From Candidatus Tepidiaquacella proteinivora (GTDB lineage Bacteria > Bacteroidota > Ignavibacteria > Tepidaquicellales > Tepidaquicellaceae): a stretch of 64,000 bases of DNA. The DNA is taken from contig CP054675.1 of assembly GCA_013348845.1 (NCBI GenBank), forward strand, positions 2,303,501 through 2,367,500, in the 5' to 3' direction. This document shows, in pieces, positions 36,438 through 43,114 of this stretch. The notes beneath the pieces were generated by a model. That model searched no databases. It worked only from the letters and a program-made list of their open reading frames with translations, and was not told the origin of the DNA. Within the stretch, counting starts at the first letter, position 1. Each line of letters opens with the position of its first letter. Both the position numbers and the translations under genes were made by a program.

Positions 36438-36917
36438 TTGAACCAAAATTACGAACCGTTGACTTTATGTAACGTTAAAAGAGCAATAATTTTAGCATAC
36501 TTAGGAAAGGTTGAGATTGTAAGTAAAGTTAATGGGAAAAAAATTAATTCTATAACCTCATCTTTCGATTGCCCGAGTATCGTGAGATTGGGCTATTTTG
36601 TTAAAGTCCCGTATAAGAAAATAATATTATCAAGAAAGAATGTTTTAAAAAGAGATAATCACAGGTGTCAGTATTGTGGTTCTACTAATAATTTAACTAT
36701 AGACCATATTATTCCAAAATCAAGGGGTGGTGAAGATTCTTGGGAAAATTTAGTAACTGCGTGTATAAGATGTAATAATAAAAAGGGAGATAGAACACCG
36801 GAAGAAGCGGGTATGGTTTTAATATCAAAACCTAAGAGACCATCTCATATTACATTTATTAAAAGTTCTGCAGGAAAAGTATTGGAAGACTGGAAACCAT
36901 TTTTATATTTATATTAA
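36438..36917 (+). CDS. HNH endonuclease family protein (start uncertain)
   Basis: At least 159 residues from TTG 36438. The HNH nuclease core is clear: CQYCG at the first zinc knuckle, LTIDHIIPKSRGG with the catalytic DH, and WENLVTACIRCNNKKGDRTPEEA with the second CxxC. It belongs to the widespread small HNH proteins whose N-terminus reads VLVLNxxYEPL. Here the codons for NGKVLV lie upstream of the TTG, so the real start is probably upstream in the frame that is open from 36345, where only non-canonical starts (ATC 36369; CTG 36408, 36417, 36432) are available. The role of this family is not settled. A Rossmann-protein gene follows after 27 nt. Confidence 0.8.
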   Translation: MNQNYEPLTLCNVKRAIILAYLGKVEIVSKVNGKKINSITSSFDCPSIVRLGYFVKVPYKKIILSRKNVLKRDNHRCQYCGSTNNLTIDHIIPKSRGGEDSWENLVTACIRCNNKKGDRTPEEAGMVLISKPKRPSHITFIKSSAGKVLEDWKPFLYLY

Positions 36918-36944: not shown

Positions 36945-38639
36945 ATGGACATTAAAAATAAAACTATTTTAATTTTAGGTGGGTGGGGATTAGTTGGTTC
37001 TGCAATTGCAAGGAAGATTATGGAGGGAAATCCTTCGAAGGTTGTTTTAACTTCATTACATAAAAATGAAGCTGAAGAGATATGTGAAGTTTTAAGTCAG
37101 GAGTTTAAAGTTAAAAATGTATTTATTCCGTTCTGGGGTAATATCTTTACAAGGTATGAATATAAAGATTTAAATCGTGATGATATAATTAATGATCCTG
37201 TAAAAAGAAGAAAAACCATTGAAGATATTGTTTATGAATTAGATGAAAGAATTTTAAAAGAGTCCTGTATATATAAACTTCTTGAGAAATTCAAACCCGA
37301 TATCATTATTGATTGTATTAATACCGCAACATCCATTGCTTACCAGAATATTTATAAGGCATATTTTGATATATTAAAAATTGCAAACTCTAAAGATAAA
37401 GATTATAATTTACTTTTGACAGCTTCAGAAAAATTAATTTGTTTTTCTTATGTTCCGCAATTAATTAGACATATTCAGATTTTATATAATTCAATGTTGA
37501 AGTTCAGGACAAAGTTTTATTTTAAAATTGGGACAAGTGGAACCGGCGGTATGGGCTTAAATATTCCGTTTACCCATAGTGAGGAAAAACCTTCTCGGGT
37601 TTTATTAAGTAAATCTTCTGTTGCTGGGGCTCATACATTGTTACTTTTCCTTATGGCTCGTACACCAGGCGGTCCTAAAATTAAAGAAATAAAACCTACG
37701 GCTGCTATTGCATGGAAGAAAATTAAATTCGGAGAAATACGAAAAAAGAATTCCCCAATTATTATATATGATGTCAAACCAGAGGATAAAATTTTACTTA
37801 AAGGAAAGTTTGAATTAAAATCTCCAAAAGAATACAAGAAAATAGGAACTTTAAAAACCCCATTCATTGATACAGGTGAAAATGGTATTTTTTCCCGTGG
37901 GGAATTTGAAGCAATTACTACTAAAGGACAGATGGAATTTGTAACTCCTGAAGAAATTGCAGAAAATGTGTTCCTGGAATTACAAGGTGGAAATACTGGC
38001 ACTGATGTGATTAGTGCGCTTGACTCTTCAGTAATGGAACCATCATACAGAGCAGGATTTATGCAACATTATGCAGTAGAAAAGTTAGTTGAACTTGAGA
38101 AAAAGCATAAAACTTACTCAGTTGCTTTTGAAATGTTAGGACCACCACGGCTATCGAAATTGCTTTATGAATGTCATTTAATAAAGTTGATATATAAAAA
38201 TTTTGATAATGTGATTAAAGATAATCCGAAATCTATATCTAAGAAATTAAATGATATTATTTTAAAAAATTCCGGAATCAGAAACGAAATTGTTTCTATA
38301 GGTGTTCCTATTCTATTATCGGACGGAAAATCTTTATTAAGAGGACCTGAAGTTATTATACCCTCAAATTCCAGTTCAAAAAGTTTTGATATTAACCTGA
38401 ATAGAATAAATCGCTGGGCTTATGATGGTTGGGTCGATTTAAGGGTTGAAAACTGTAAGATTTGGAGGGAAAGATTTATTAAGATTAAAAATCAGACAGA
38501 AGAGGAATTTGATTGTATGTATAGTTCTAAGATAGTTTTTTCTAAAGAATATTGGGATAATTTTAAAGATATAAACATCGGGAAAATTGTTGGTTGGATT
38601 TTTATCAATGAAGAAAAAGGTTTAAGAATGAAAGGATAA
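36945..38639 (+). CDS. NAD(P)-binding Rossmann-fold protein of unknown substrate
   Basis: 564 residues. The N-terminus ILILGGWGLVGSAIARKI (about 9-26) is a dinucleotide-binding glycine motif like that of extended short-chain dehydrogenases, and FKPDIIIDCINTATS matches the following strands. A glycine-rich stretch IGTSGTGGMGLNIPFTHSEEKPS (about 193-215) follows. The C-terminal 250 residues match nothing I recognise. No YxxxK catalytic pair can be assigned with confidence. It is separated by only 2 nt from a NuoM-type gene and then a Na+/H+ antiporter, hinting at a shared unit. Substrate unknown. Confidence 0.65.
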   Translation: MDIKNKTILILGGWGLVGSAIARKIMEGNPSKVVLTSLHKNEAEEICEVLSQEFKVKNVFIPFWGNIFTRYEYKDLNRDDIINDPVKRRKTIEDIVYELDERILKESCIYKLLEKFKPDIIIDCINTATSIAYQNIYKAYFDILKIANSKDKDYNLLLTASEKLICFSYVPQLIRHIQILYNSMLKFRTKFYFKIGTSGTGGMGLNIPFTHSEEKPSRVLLSKSSVAGAHTLLLFLMARTPGGPKIKEIKPTAAIAWKKIKFGEIRKKNSPIIIYDVKPEDKILLKGKFELKSPKEYKKIGTLKTPFIDTGENGIFSRGEFEAITTKGQMEFVTPEEIAENVFLELQGGNTGTDVISALDSSVMEPSYRAGFMQHYAVEKLVELEKKHKTYSVAFEMLGPPRLSKLLYECHLIKLIYKNFDNVIKDNPKSISKKLNDIILKNSGIRNEIVSIGVPILLSDGKSLLRGPEVIIPSNSSSKSFDINLNRINRWAYDGWVDLRVENCKIWRERFIKIKNQTEEEFDCMYSSKIVFSKEYWDNFKDINIGKIVGWIFINEEKGLRMKG

Positions 38640-38641
38640 AA

Positions 38642-40180
38642 TTGGAATCTAATATTTTAAGTATATTAATATTTTTTCCGATTATTTTATCTATTCCGAT
38701 TCTTTTTTTCCATAAGGAAAATAATCTGTTGATAAAAACTTATGCTATTATAATTTCTCTTTTAACCTTTCTGATTTCAATATATCTTTTTCTTAATTTT
38801 AGAACAGAGATTACTGATTTTCAATTTGTTGAAAAAGTACAATGGATAAAATCAATAAGATGTAATTATTATCTTGGAGTGGATGGGATATCAGTCTTGT
38901 TGATAATGCTAACAACTTTTCTTTTCCCCTTGTGTATCTTTGCATCCTGGAATACTATAAAAAATCGTATTAAGGAATATTACTTTTTATTGCTTTTACT
39001 TGAAGGTGCTTTGATTGGGGTTTTTTGTTCCCTTGATTTAATACTCTTTTATGTATTCTGGGAATTTATTTTAATTCCTATGTATTTTATAATTGGTTTA
39101 TGGGGCGGTGAAGATAGAATTTATGCTACATTAAAATTCTTTATTTATACTATGCTTGGAAGTGTTTTATTACTTATTGGAATTTTATGGCTCGGGTTTA
39201 TGGCATCCCCATTATATGGAGTATTTACCAGTGATTTTGTTGAGTTAGCTAAGGTATCTTGTGTACAACCAATCAATAAACAAATTATACTTTTTATTTT
39301 CTTCACTCTTGGATTTCTTATTAAAGTGCCTCTTTTCCCATTTCATACATGGTTACCTGATGCACATGTTCAAGCACCTACAGCTGGAAGTGTAATACTT
39401 GCTGCTATATTGTTAAAAATGGGAACTTATGGATTAATTAGATTTTCACTCGGTCTTTTTCCCGCTGCTTTCGAATATTTTAGTCATATTTTATCAATAC
39501 TTGCTATTATTGGTATAATTTATGGTGCTTTACTTTGTATTGTCCAAACTGATATGAAAAAATTAATTGCTTATTCTTCTGTGAGTCATCTTGGTTTTGT
39601 TGTCCTTGGTATTTTAGCAGTAAATCAAGAGGGTTTGCAGGGGAGTGTTATACAAATGATCAATCATGGATTATCAACTGGTGCTCTGTTTTTAATAGTT
39701 GGGATTATTTATGAAAGAAGGCACACGAAATTAATTTCTGAATTTGGAGGAATAAGAAAAGTTATGCCTTCATTAGCAGCAATATTTTTAATCGTTTCAT
39801 TATCATCAATTGGTTTACCAGGGTTAAATGGTTTTATTGGAGAATTTTTAATTCTTATTGGAGCTTTTACCTCTTTCAATCTTAATAATAATATTTATGC
39901 AATTATTGCATCTGTTGGTATAGTATTATCTGCTGTTTATCTTTTATGGTTATATCAAAGGGTTATGCTCGGTCCTGTTGTTAAGGAAGAAAACAAAAAT
40001 TTAAAAGATTTATCTAAACTTGAATATTTATCTCTAATACCAATCCTTGTGTTTATTTTTTGGATTGGTGTCTATCCAAACACCTTTCTGAAAATATCAG
40101 AGGCAAGCGTTAAAAAGTTGGTTGAAAATTTTGAGTCTGCAAAAGGCAAGATTCAAATAGATATACCCAAAGAAAAATAA
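38642..40180 (+). CDS. nuoM: NADH-quinone oxidoreductase subunit M (orphan NuoM-like antiporter subunit)
   Basis: 512 residues, about 14 membrane helices. The residues needed for proton translocation in NuoM are present: Glu in FWEFILIPMY (TM5), Lys in FLIKVPLFPFHTWLPDAH (TM7), Lys in ILLKMGTYG (TM8) and Glu in GFIGEFLILIG (TM12). The HVQAPTAGSVILA and YSSVSHLGFV signatures also match. No other complex I gene occurs nearby: it is preceded by a Rossmann protein (2 nt) and followed by an NhaD-like antiporter (2 nt). It could be a second copy or a separate ion-translocating unit. Starts TTG at 38642. Confidence 0.88.
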   Translation: MESNILSILIFFPIILSIPILFFHKENNLLIKTYAIIISLLTFLISIYLFLNFRTEITDFQFVEKVQWIKSIRCNYYLGVDGISVLLIMLTTFLFPLCIFASWNTIKNRIKEYYFLLLLLEGALIGVFCSLDLILFYVFWEFILIPMYFIIGLWGGEDRIYATLKFFIYTMLGSVLLLIGILWLGFMASPLYGVFTSDFVELAKVSCVQPINKQIILFIFFTLGFLIKVPLFPFHTWLPDAHVQAPTAGSVILAAILLKMGTYGLIRFSLGLFPAAFEYFSHILSILAIIGIIYGALLCIVQTDMKKLIAYSSVSHLGFVVLGILAVNQEGLQGSVIQMINHGLSTGALFLIVGIIYERRHTKLISEFGGIRKVMPSLAAIFLIVSLSSIGLPGLNGFIGEFLILIGAFTSFNLNNNIYAIIASVGIVLSAVYLLWLYQRVMLGPVVKEENKNLKDLSKLEYLSLIPILVFIFWIGVYPNTFLKISEASVKKLVENFESAKGKIQIDIPKEK

Positions 40181-40182
40181 CA

Positions 40183-41451
40183 TTGGAGTTAAAATTGGAA
40201 TTTCTTTTATTCATTCCGTTTATTGTGCTTTTATTGTCAATTGCTATTATGCCATTTTTAGCACCATCCTGGTGGCATAAAAATTATGGGAAATTCTCCA
40301 TTTTGCTTGCTCTATTTATGGTGTTGTTTTATTTAATTGCACTGAAAAAAAATGATGAGGTAATAAAGACAGCAGAGGAATATATTAGTTTTATTTGTCT
40401 TCTTGGTTCTTTGTACACCGTATCTGGCGGAATATATTTTGTAATCAAAGGAAAAGCTACACCTTTTAAAAATACACTTACACTTTTTATTGGATCCGTG
40501 ATTGCAAATTTTTTTGGAACAACTGGTGCTGCGATGCTATTAATAAGACCTTATATGAATTCAAATAAGAACAGATTAAAACCTTATCATATAGTGTTTT
40601 TTATTTTCACAGTTTGTAATACTGGTGGTGCACTTACACCAATCGGAGACCCTCCTTTATTTCTTGGGTATTTAAAAGGTGTTCCTTTCTTTTGGATAAT
40701 AGGTAATCTTTATTATATTTGGTTTTTTACATTACTGTATATACTTTTAATCTTTTATATTATTGATAAATATAATTACGAAAAATTGCGTAGAGACGCA
40801 CGTTCGAGAATTGAAGAAAAAGGAGAAGAATTTGAATTTAGAGGATTATATAATATAATTTTTCTCTTAATTATTATTGCTTCTGTTTTTATTACAAAGC
40901 CCATATTTGTGAGAGAGGCTCTTATGATTTTCTGTGCTGTTGCTTCTTATAGATTAACACCTCGCGAGGTTCATAGAAAAAATAAGTTCAATTTTGAGCC
41001 AATAAAAGAAGTAGCTCTTCTTTTCATTGGAATTTTTATGACTATGATGCCGGTTTTAAATTATCTCAGTAAAAATGCTGAAGATCTTAATATTAAAACT
41101 CCGGGCGAATTTTATTGGGTTGCAGGATTTCTAACAAGTTTTCTTGACAATGCTCCAACTTACCTTAATTTTCTAACTATGGCTATGGGACTGGAACATT
41201 TAAATATCTATAATCCTAATGAAGTTTTATTATTCCTTGATAAATTCAAAATTTATGTTATCTCTATTTCTGTATCTTCTGTATTTTTCGGGGCAATGAC
41301 ATATATTGGAAATGGACCAAATTTTATGGTAAAATCTATTGCTGAGAATAAGGGTGTGAAAATGCCGGCATTTTTCACTTATATTTATAAATACTCTCTT
41401 CCTATTTTAATTCCTGCATTTTTTGTAATTTGGTATATATTTTTTAGATAA
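40183..41451 (+). CDS. NhaD-like Na+/H+ antiporter (ion transporter superfamily)
   Basis: 422 residues, about 11 hydrophobic segments. Two halves carry the superfamily re-entrant motifs: NTGGALTPIGDPPLFLGYLKG in the first half and FLDNAPTYLNFL with YIGNGPNFMVKSIAE in the second. The TPIGDPP motif is typical of NhaD and arsenite/citrate-type (IT superfamily) carriers. It probably exchanges sodium and protons across the cytoplasmic membrane. The start is TTG at 40183 or TTG at 40195; the second gives a more usual short N-terminus. It lies 2 nt behind the NuoM-like gene. Confidence 0.82.
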   Translation: MELKLEFLLFIPFIVLLLSIAIMPFLAPSWWHKNYGKFSILLALFMVLFYLIALKKNDEVIKTAEEYISFICLLGSLYTVSGGIYFVIKGKATPFKNTLTLFIGSVIANFFGTTGAAMLLIRPYMNSNKNRLKPYHIVFFIFTVCNTGGALTPIGDPPLFLGYLKGVPFFWIIGNLYYIWFFTLLYILLIFYIIDKYNYEKLRRDARSRIEEKGEEFEFRGLYNIIFLLIIIASVFITKPIFVREALMIFCAVASYRLTPREVHRKNKFNFEPIKEVALLFIGIFMTMMPVLNYLSKNAEDLNIKTPGEFYWVAGFLTSFLDNAPTYLNFLTMAMGLEHLNIYNPNEVLLFLDKFKIYVISISVSSVFFGAMTYIGNGPNFMVKSIAENKGVKMPAFFTYIYKYSLPILIPAFFVIWYIFFR

Positions 41452-41545: not shown

Positions 41546-43114
41546 ATGAATAAAAAGAAATATTTATACCTAATCACATTTCTCGTCCTTGCGATTGGTA
41601 TTATTATAGGAATGAAGATTCAGGATGCGATTTCTGATGATAAGATTGGAGAACAGGTTAAAAAATATGCTGAAGTCTTAAGTTTAGTGTCTCAGTATTA
41701 TGTTGACACTGTTGATTCTCAAAAATTAACGGAAGTCGCAATAAATTCACTCCTGCAAGAATTAGACCCTCATTCTGTCTATATTGATCCGGAGCAGTTG
41801 AAGAGAGTAAATGAAGATTTTCAGGGTAGCTTTGAAGGAATTGGAATTGAATTTGATATTATAAACGATACTCTAACTGTTATAACACCAATTAGTGGTG
41901 GTCCTTCAGATAAACTTGGAATTTTAGCAGGGGATAAAATAGTTAAGATTGATGGCGTATCTGCTATAAAAATATCAAGAGAAGATGTGCCCAAAAAATT
42001 ACGAGGGAAAAAAGGAACAAAAGTTACTGTTACAATAATTAGAGCAGGGATGACAGAACCACTTGAATTTGTTATAACAAGAGATAAAATACCTCTTTAC
42101 AGTGTTGATGCATCTTTTATGTATGAAGATGATATTGGTTATATAAAAGTTTCCCGTTTCTCAGCTACAACTTATAAAGAATTTACTGATGCTTTGAGCA
42201 AATTGAAAAGTCAGGGGATGGGGAAACTAATTCTTGATTTGAGAGGTAATCCGGGTGGATATCTTGAGCAGGCATTTAAAGTAGCAAGTGAGTTTATTCC
42301 TGCCGGGAGAAAAATTGTTTATACTCAGGGAAGACTTTCTATGTTTAACGATGTATATAATTCTTCCGGTGGAAAATATACAGACATCCCCTTAATTATC
42401 CTCGTTAATGGTGGTTCTGCATCGGCAAGTGAAATAGTTTCCGGAGCTATTCAGGATTGGGATAGGGGATTAATCGTCGGAGAAACAACTTTTGGTAAAG
42501 GGTTGGTACAGAGACAATTTGATATTTTTGATGGTTCAGCAGTCCGAATTACAACCTCTAAATATTATACTCCTTCCGGTAGATTAATACAAAAGCCCTA
42601 TGAACACGGCAAATATAAAAATATTGACGATGAAGCGAAGAATGTTGCAGATACCACTCGTCCACAGTATAAAACTGCTGGCGGTAGGATTGTATTAGGT
42701 GGTGGAGGTATTACCCCGGATTATATAGTAAAACTTGATACATTAAGTGAGTACACAGTATCTTTAAGACGACTGAATCTTATTTATGAGTACACTGAAA
42801 ATTATATGAAGTCTATGCGAAAAAGCATAGAAAATACTTATAAAGATTACAATTCTTTCAGGAAGGATTTTATTGTTTCTGATGCAATGTTAAAAGATTT
42901 AATTTCATTTGCTGAAAGTAGAAATGTTAAATTTAATCAGGAACAATTTGAACGGGATAAAAAATTTATTATAACTTCGATTAAGTTTCAGATCGCAAGG
43001 GATATCTGGGGTAATGAAGGAGCGTATGCTGTTTTTGTATCTGATGATGAGCAATTTTTAAAAGCTTTAGAACTTTTTGTTACTGAAAAAGATTTTCTGA
43101 ATAGATTGAAATAA
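41546..43114 (+). CDS. C-terminal processing peptidase (S41, CtpA/Prc-like)
   Basis: 522 residues. An N-terminal signal anchor (about 6-24) is followed by the DPHSVYIDPEQ segment, a PDZ domain (about 90-170, PISGGPSDKLGILAGDKIVKI), and the S41 protease core. The catalytic serine is probably S293 in GGSASASE and the general-base lysine is K318 in TTFGKG, 25 residues apart as usual. It cleaves proteins near their C-termini in the periplasm. It leads a likely operon with the DUF3108 gene (6 nt away), the LolA-like gene and a membrane protein. Confidence 0.95.
   Translation: MNKKKYLYLITFLVLAIGIIIGMKIQDAISDDKIGEQVKKYAEVLSLVSQYYVDTVDSQKLTEVAINSLLQELDPHSVYIDPEQLKRVNEDFQGSFEGIGIEFDIINDTLTVITPISGGPSDKLGILAGDKIVKIDGVSAIKISREDVPKKLRGKKGTKVTVTIIRAGMTEPLEFVITRDKIPLYSVDASFMYEDDIGYIKVSRFSATTYKEFTDALSKLKSQGMGKLILDLRGNPGGYLEQAFKVASEFIPAGRKIVYTQGRLSMFNDVYNSSGGKYTDIPLIILVNGGSASASEIVSGAIQDWDRGLIVGETTFGKGLVQRQFDIFDGSAVRITTSKYYTPSGRLIQKPYEHGKYKNIDDEAKNVADTTRPQYKTAGGRIVLGGGGITPDYIVKLDTLSEYTVSLRRLNLIYEYTENYMKSMRKSIENTYKDYNSFRKDFIVSDAMLKDLISFAESRNVKFNQEQFERDKKFIITSIKFQIARDIWGNEGAYAVFVSDDEQFLKALELFVTEKDFLNRLK

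What the first reader, a model, noticed from the sequence alone, without database searches (positions are those of the whole stretch)
36945..41451. Orphan NuoM subunit packed between a Rossmann protein and an NhaD-type antiporter
Spacings of 2 nt on both sides imply one transcription and translation unit. The NuoM keeps all four pump residues, but no other complex I gene is present. A NuoM-like subunit plus a separate sodium/proton carrier plus a dinucleotide-binding protein is not a layout I can match to a known complex; it may be a sodium/proton module linked to NAD(P) chemistry.
Basis: partly seen in the sequence, partly recalled or inferred. Interest (0 to 1): 0.5.

Follow-up and report, generated by a model that had tools for sequence, protein, structure and literature searches.

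The report
Scattered complex I: relocated NuoM gene
The lone NuoM gene is the proton-pump subunit of an ordinary 14-subunit respiratory complex I whose genes are scattered around this bacterium's chromosome, and its neighbouring ion-transporter gene is an old companion from the ancestral complex I operon.

Summary
The trio is real: ROSS 36945-38639, NuoM 38642-40180, CitMHS_2 transporter 40183-41451, gaps of 2 nt. The NuoM is not an orphan. The complete 2.40-Mb chromosome carries two complex I sets. One is an 11-gene operon A-B-C-D-H-I-J-K-L-M-N without EFG, with its own NuoM (45% identical). The other is a 14-subunit set in eight places: ABCDEF, N, KL, I, G, H, J, and M in this window. The window NuoM groups with the M genes of sister families' nuo clusters; in six family genomes it is the only NuoM found. 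This two-set arrangement is in print for Ignavibacterium album and related MAGs (PMC6338057). The transporter link is old: PF16980 adjoins this NuoM in 31 of the 33 genomes that carry it, of 59, and lies inside L-M-PF16980-N clusters in sister families. I recall the same from Rhodothermus marinus. The Rossmann protein is a newcomer: NuoM follows it in 15 of the 16 most similar named loci and 0 of 64 others. Most likely: ordinary complex I with broken-up gene order, plus an antiporter inherited from the ancestral operon.

The parts
38642..40180 (+). NuoM, antiporter-like subunit M of the dispersed 14-subunit complex I (genome 2342142-2343680)
   Evidence: TIGR01972 605 bits; PDB best match 8qby_M, a NADH dehydrogenase subunit M; tree; pump residues E141, K228, K259, E401
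40183..41451 (+). CitMHS_2 (PF16980) transporter, IT-superfamily fold, probable Na+/H+ antiporter; ancestral neighbour of NuoM
   Evidence: PF16980 472 bits; model resembles NaDC3, NaCT, ArsB, INDY; adjacent to NuoM in 31 of 33 PF16980-bearing genomes
36945..38639 (+). ROSS: 564-aa protein with N-terminal SDR-like Rossmann domain (GGWGLVGSA), function unknown; NuoM's neighbour only in this family as far as examined
   Evidence: no Pfam family; AF2 pLDDT 81, SDR/4,6-dehydratase matches; NuoM follows in 15 of the 16 most similar named loci, 0 of 64 others
36438..36917 (+). HNH endonuclease-domain gene that marks the neighbourhood (HNH-ALDH-x-NuoM in many relatives; no ALDH here)
   Evidence: PF01844; HNH upstream of NuoM in families f1 and f2
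41546..43114 (+). S41 C-terminal processing peptidase, downstream flank shared by relatives; not part of the system
   Evidence: PF03572; directly downstream of the transporter in L117-L123 and L125-L127

Best explanation
The NuoM is the M subunit (proton channel of the membrane arm) of a canonical 14-subunit NADH:quinone oxidoreductase whose genes lie in eight places on this chromosome. SHOWN: all 14 subunits exist as a second set beside an 11-gene operon that has its own M; the window gene is the only M of that set; it groups with M genes that in sister families sit in J-K-L-M-N or L-M-N clusters. SHOWN: the PF16980 transporter next to it lies inside such clusters, between M and N, in several of those families, so the simplest history is that the pair stayed together when the operon broke up. 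INFERRED: the proteins assemble in trans into complex I and pump protons; the transporter is a separate Na+/H+ antiporter of the ion-transporter superfamily that spends the proton gradient on Na+ extrusion and pH control, and is co-expressed with NuoM. INFERRED: ROSS is an unrelated SDR-like enzyme that shares the transcript; in some relatives an aldehyde dehydrogenase gene lies near it.
For: Own genome: 8 Proton_antipo_M matches. Operon A-B-C-D-H-I-J-K-L-M-N at 132.4-142.8 kb. Second set: ABCDEF 102.8-107.2 kb, N 291.5 kb, KL 505.8-508.0 kb, I 523.1 kb, G 1194.5 kb, H 1565.0 kb, J 1670.7 kb, M 2342.1 kb; NCBIfam best matches agree for A-F and H-K, G by TIGR01973, L and N by PF00361 and tree. 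In the 6 family and 2 order genomes examined the set is likewise not in one cluster; outer families keep clusters. Six family genomes have only three matches to the NuoM query, one of them this NuoM, and no second NuoM appears in the list down to about E 1e-25. NuoM tree: window M in a 36-row M clade (support 100) with cluster-encoded M genes, own 11-gene M as sister of the rest. [quoted passage not shown] In M. roseus, rotenone stops aerobic growth and NuoG of the non-operon locus rises in aerobic cells (PMC5492636 with PMC3534657, passages).
Against: No expression, assembly or pumping data for this organism. NuoG scores 427.8 bits, below the TIGR01973 cut-off of 470; NuoA and NuoJ are below the cut-offs of the models they match. 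That the transporter exchanges Na+ for H+ is untested; Pfam calls it 'putative citrate transport'. Lasting adjacency may be inertia, not co-function: NuoN also sits beside what looks like an old non-nuo neighbour pair.
Confidence: 0.93

Rival explanations
1. A stand-alone sodium/proton module: NuoM plus the transporter plus the Rossmann protein form their own complex, separate from complex I.
For: 2-nt gaps; full trio in 11 of 29 genomes of the family; M-transporter adjacency in 31 of 33.
Against: Without this NuoM the 14-subunit set has no M. In six family genomes it is the only NuoM found. NuoM does not follow ROSS in 64 of 64 named loci outside the 16 most similar (two of the 64 hold under 250 nt downstream). 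In f10 genomes G051, G103 and G118 the transporter persists although nuoJKLMN are gone from beside it.
Confidence: 0.03
2. The transporter is a functional accessory of complex I (same operon by selection): it uses locally pumped protons to expel Na+, perhaps bound to the distal membrane arm, so M and transporter stay paired even after operon break-up.
For: Adjacency in 9 families in the phylum survey (20 of 79 genomes); the pair kept in 24 of 24 assessable f1 and f2 genomes that have the transporter, while the other nuo genes except KL and the ABCDEF group are no longer adjacent in the 8 examined; all 23 M-linked transporters placed in a tree fall in one clade; R. marinus precedent recalled.
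Against: Absent from 15 of 27 f1 genomes that keep the NuoM; kept without nuoJKLMN beside it in G051, G103, G118; f1 and f2 share the HNH/ALDH flank, so one relocation then inheritance explains the pairing there; in f2 genomes G029 and G032 the M, N and KL genes are still within about 35 kb of each other; NuoN too seems to have kept an old neighbour. The clade also holds unlinked f24 and f35 copies, and the f30 copies that lie 2.4 kb from NuoM fall outside it. 51 of 79 survey genomes show no link.
Confidence: 0.2
3. Spare or decaying duplicate: the window NuoM is a redundant leftover of an extra nuo operon.
For: A second NuoM exists in the 11-gene operon.
Against: Open frame with all four key residues; present in 54 of 59 genomes, own included, and the only NuoM found in six family genomes; the 13 partner subunits of its own set are all present.
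Confidence: 0.03

Closest known systems
Two nuo sets of Ignavibacterium album and related hot-spring MAGs (PMC6338057, passages read)
   Different: The passages read do not mention the M-transporter pair or the SDR-like neighbour
Melioribacter roseus complex I genes (PMC3534657, passages read)
   Same: 11-gene cluster without EFG plus a second set split over loci (an ABCDEF/JKLMN cluster and a GHI locus)
   Different: Less scattered: by its gene numbers J-K-L-M and N are still close together
Rhodothermus marinus complex I genes with nhaD and pcd (Melo et al. 2005, recalled title only, not held); the R. marinus antiporter founded the NhaE family (PMC9408914, passages)
   Same: Na+/H+ antiporter gene among complex I genes. 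In family f21 here the order is L-M-PF16980-PCD(PF01329)-N, which fits that recalled description
   Different: Here M and the transporter sit apart from the other nuo genes. Orthology with the R. marinus protein was not tested by sequence, and f21 is unnamed
Mrp antiporter; DabAB (recalled)
   Same: Use NuoL/M-like proteins outside complex I
   Different: The genome's Mrp operon is separate (1.59 Mb), and the window NuoM groups with NuoM, not MrpA or MrpD. DabAB was not tested

Membership tests
Complex I subunit NuoM | Scores above the curated NuoM cut-off | tested here: met
   TIGR01972 605.2 bits, cut-off 263.8
Complex I subunit NuoM | Phylogenetically within NuoM, not NuoL, NuoN or Mrp | tested here: met
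   36-row NuoM clade, support 100 (quick tree, Mrp rows on long branches)
Complex I subunit NuoM | Conserved pump residues (two Glu, two Lys; recalled) | tested here: met
   E141, K228, K259, E401 by motif
14-subunit complex I | All other subunits A-L and N encoded in the genome | tested here: met
   NuoG, NuoA and NuoJ below the cut-offs of their models but with those as best matches
14-subunit complex I | Assembly into one enzyme with NADH:quinone activity | not testable with these tools
   needs biochemistry
NhaD Na+/H+ antiporter | Matches an NhaD family model | tested here: not met
   no NCBIfam NhaD match up to E = 10 (that the library holds an NhaD model is recalled); PF16980 instead
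Ion-transporter (IT) superfamily carrier | DASS/INDY/ArsB-like fold | tested here: met
   Foldseek prob 1.00 to NaDC3, NaCT, ArsB, INDY, TMq 0.46-0.56 but rmsd 8-12, 5 matches at E <= 0.001, model pLDDT 78
NhaE (2.A.111) antiporter | Sequence homology to R. marinus NhaE and Na+/H+ exchange | not tested
   reference sequence not available by name here; layout agreement only
SDR superfamily (ROSS) | N-terminal GxxGxxG-like Rossmann nucleotide-binding fold | tested here: met
   G12, G13, G15 and G18 invariant in 29 sequences; SDR matches
SDR superfamily (ROSS) | YxxxK catalytic motif | tested here: inconclusive
   invariant Y192 and K194 are spaced YxK, not YxxxK; no other YxxxK was sought

The most novel reading that the evidence does not exclude
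The PF16980 antiporter is a functional partner of complex I's distal pump module. It is encoded with NuoM because it takes protons delivered by M/L and exchanges them for Na+, making a lineage-wide complex I/antiporter unit; the scattered genomes are a natural experiment in which the M-antiporter pair, like K-L, has stayed together.
Probability: 0.12. Interest if true: 0.65.

Novelty: new member of a known kind. Interest (0 to 1): 0.28.

Why it matters
It removes a supposed unknown Na+/H+ complex and shows why a window view misleads: complex I genes can be scattered one by one, so a lone nuo gene is not evidence of a new machine. The pairing of NuoM with a PF16980 carrier in at least nine families makes a testable question out of an old observation from Rhodothermus (recalled): does complex I in this group work together with a dedicated Na+/H+ antiporter?

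Tried and rejected
Candidate NuoG at 1576052-1577941: rejected, because by eye its sequence carries what I recall as [FeFe]-hydrogenase signatures; the better NuoG is at 1194.5 kb. Viral contigs scan with ROSS: nothing. Paper searches, listings only: 'orphan NuoM' and similar, 15 of 42 papers listed, none on this layout by title; Ignavibacteri/complex I/nuo genes/scattered, 18 listed, one of which (PMC6338057) proved relevant; nuo genes + dispersed + operon and others, 2 papers, not read; nhaD + nuoM + nuoN, 2 papers, not read, neither on this group by title; Ignavibacteri + nuoM + antiporter, 0. The library holds open-licence papers only. PMC3543383 was looked at in passages because it held the search words; its NhaD passage does not concern complex I. 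PDB sequence search: the transporter has no match up to E = 1, ROSS only weak matches of E 0.14 or worse. Promoter/terminator scan: promoter-like sites 44 against 33.9 expected (sd 5.6), terminators 2 against 2.3, so not informative. A Mrp-like reading was rejected by the tree. Not done: expression data, complex I purification data, naming of family f21, a search for YxxxK elsewhere in ROSS, a family search with the ROSS C-terminal half alone.

Full report
OBSERVATION. NuoM is a strong NuoM (TIGR01972 605 bits), nearest in the PDB by sequence to 8qby_M (Paracoccus, recalled), with the four pump residues in place. The third gene is a CitMHS_2 (PF16980) carrier. The first has no Pfam family, and its model has an N-terminal SDR-like Rossmann domain.

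THE NUOM IS NOT AN ORPHAN. The window lies at 2303501-2367500 of a single-contig 2.40-Mb chromosome with eight Proton_antipo_M matches. At 132.4-142.8 kb there is an 11-gene operon, nuoA-B-C-D-H-I-J-K-L-M-N, without EFG. Its NuoM is 45% identical to the window's. A second set is scattered: ABCDEF at 102.8-107.2 kb, N at 291.5, K-L at 505.8-508.0, I at 523.1, G at 1194.5, H at 1565.0, J at 1670.7 and M at 2342.1 kb. NCBIfam best matches for A-F and H-K are the expected subunits, A and J below the cut-offs of their models. NuoG is the best TIGR01973 match (427.8 bits, below the 470 cut-off). L and N rest on PF00361 and the tree. So the set is eight gene groups on one chromosome (KL and I only 15 kb apart), and the window gene is its only M.

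THE SAME IN RELATIVES. A window-type NuoM is found in 54 of 59 genomes, own included. In six genomes of the family (G005, G008, G013, G016, G019, G020; G019 is 88% complete) only three matches to the NuoM query exist, one of them this NuoM, and no second NuoM appears in the list down to about E 1e-25. A search with nine subunits in 11 genomes shows the second set spread out in the family (G000, G002, G008, G010, G013, G016) and, less far, in family f2 (G029, G032, where M, N and KL are no longer adjacent but lie within about 35 kb). Some of these genomes are drafts in up to 80 contigs. Clusters remain in outer families: J-K-L-M-N in G052, G049 and G047, L-M-N in G048, M-N in G058. In a tree of 85 antiporter-like proteins the window M joins the M genes of those clusters (36-row clade, support 100), apart from NuoL, NuoN and Mrp, with the own 11-gene M as sister of the rest (quick method, Mrp rows on long branches). 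The layout is in print: hot-spring MAGs 'similar to the genome of I. [quoted passage not shown] M. roseus has a milder version (PMC3534657, passages); there rotenone stops aerobic growth and NuoG (MROS_2032, of the GHI locus) is raised in aerobic cells (PMC5492636, passages).

THE TRANSPORTER IS AN OLD NEIGHBOUR. Among the same 59 genomes, 33 carry PF16980. In 31 of 33 it lies within 500 nt of the window-type NuoM on the same strand: 12 of 12 in f1, 12 of 13 in f2 (in G038 the two genes lie on different contigs), 7 of 8 elsewhere (G051 has no window-type NuoM). In outer families it sits inside the nuo cluster: L-M-T-N in G056 and G044, J-K-L-M-T-x-N in G053, M-T-N in G055, and others. In a phylum draw of 148 genomes, 79 carry PF16980, of which 72 also have a NuoM at E <= 1e-100. 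In 20 of 79 it is adjacent to NuoM, in nine families; in eight more (family f30) it lies 2.4 kb away on the opposite strand; 51 show no link (the NuoM list was cut at its weakest rows, so linked counts are lower bounds). Family f21 has L-M-PF16980-PCD-N, the PCD confirmed as PF01329. I recall that layout as described for Rhodothermus marinus (Melo et al. 2005, not held). The R. marinus antiporter founded the NhaE family (PMC9408914, passages). In a tree of 41 transporters the 23 M-linked ones all fall in one 29-row clade (100/99). That clade also holds unlinked f24 and f35 copies and three f10 copies described next. Unlinked f10, f18 and f37 copies, and all five f30 copies, including three that lie 2.4 kb from NuoM, fall outside, so the f30 link may be a separate matter.

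WHAT SPEAKS AGAINST A TIGHT MODULE. The transporter is absent from 15 of 27 f1 genomes that keep this NuoM (G004 among them is 77% complete). In G051, G103 and G118 it stays while nuoJKLMN are gone from beside it. f1 and f2 share the upstream HNH/ALDH flank, so one relocation and inheritance would explain the pairing there. NuoN may also have kept an ancestral non-nuo neighbour: in the own genome it follows a 522-aa gene and a 130-aa gene that are 33-39% identical to the NAD(P)H-hydrate dehydratase gene and its small neighbour beside the transporter in G103 and G118 (Pfam of the G103 gene); by eye the same two genes follow NuoN in outer families such as G044 and G047. Inertia is therefore enough to explain the pairing.

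THE ROSSMANN PROTEIN IS A NEWCOMER. ROSS occurs in 30 of 59 genomes, own included, and 538 stretches in the genome collection encode a relative, of which the best 80 were kept. NuoM follows it in 18 of 19 loci of the family (the 19th is cut by a contig end) and in 0 of 11 other loci. Among the 80 named loci it is 15 of the 16 at 60% identity or more (the 16th is cut) and 0 of the other 64, two of which hold under 250 nt downstream. In family genomes without a ROSS match, an aldehyde dehydrogenase and a GNAT gene stand upstream of NuoM instead (L199-L202 and L204; in L203 the contig starts too close to tell); other such genomes were not fetched. The full trio is in 11 of 29 genomes of the family.

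MECHANISM. Shown: gene content, ancestry and neighbourhoods. Inferred: NuoM assembles in trans with the 13 scattered partners and pumps protons; the carrier, whose model looks like NaDC3, NaCT, ArsB and INDY (TMq about 0.5, rmsd 8-12, pLDDT 78), works as a separate Na+/H+ antiporter. It is not an NhaD by family model, and NhaE membership was not tested.

VERDICT. Ordinary subunit, published arrangement, with a conserved NuoM-carrier pairing worth a test. Interest 0.28.

Noticed in passing
G000:C1:124000-126515 (L039:1-2516, minus strand): An 838-aa (cut) Cas9-like ORF, judged by eye from its N-terminus (recalled motif), a few kb upstream of the 11-gene nuo operon; outside the window.
   Followed up: no
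L040:7572-10958 (genome 289571-292957): Dispersed NuoN follows an NAD(P)H-hydrate dehydratase-like gene and a 130-aa gene; relatives of both lie beside the transporter in G103 and G118 and, by eye, after NuoN in outer families: perhaps another relic neighbourhood.
   Followed up: partly
L263, L264, L265 (G051, G103, G118): PF16980 carrier kept, with a 518-531-aa gene just downstream (NAD(P)H-hydrate dehydratase by Pfam in G103), although nuoJKLMN are missing from beside it.
   Followed up: partly
L257:6682-7047 and L205:10641-11021: Unknown 121-126-aa protein between the carrier and NuoN in several families, no Pfam match.
   Followed up: no
L079:4052-7125 (genome 1576052-1579125): NuoF-like gene (PF01512) beside a 629-aa protein that looks like [FeFe]-hydrogenase HydA by eye; not counted as complex I.
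   Followed up: no
window 36438-36917: HNH protein whose HNH domain matches IscB/Cas9 HNH models far below their cut-offs; a conserved flank of NuoM in families f1 and f2.
   Followed up: partly
L259, L260 (family f30): PF16980 carrier on the opposite strand beside an L-M-PCD-N cluster, 2.4 kb from NuoM; the tree puts these copies outside the M-linked clade, so the link may have arisen separately.
   Followed up: partly
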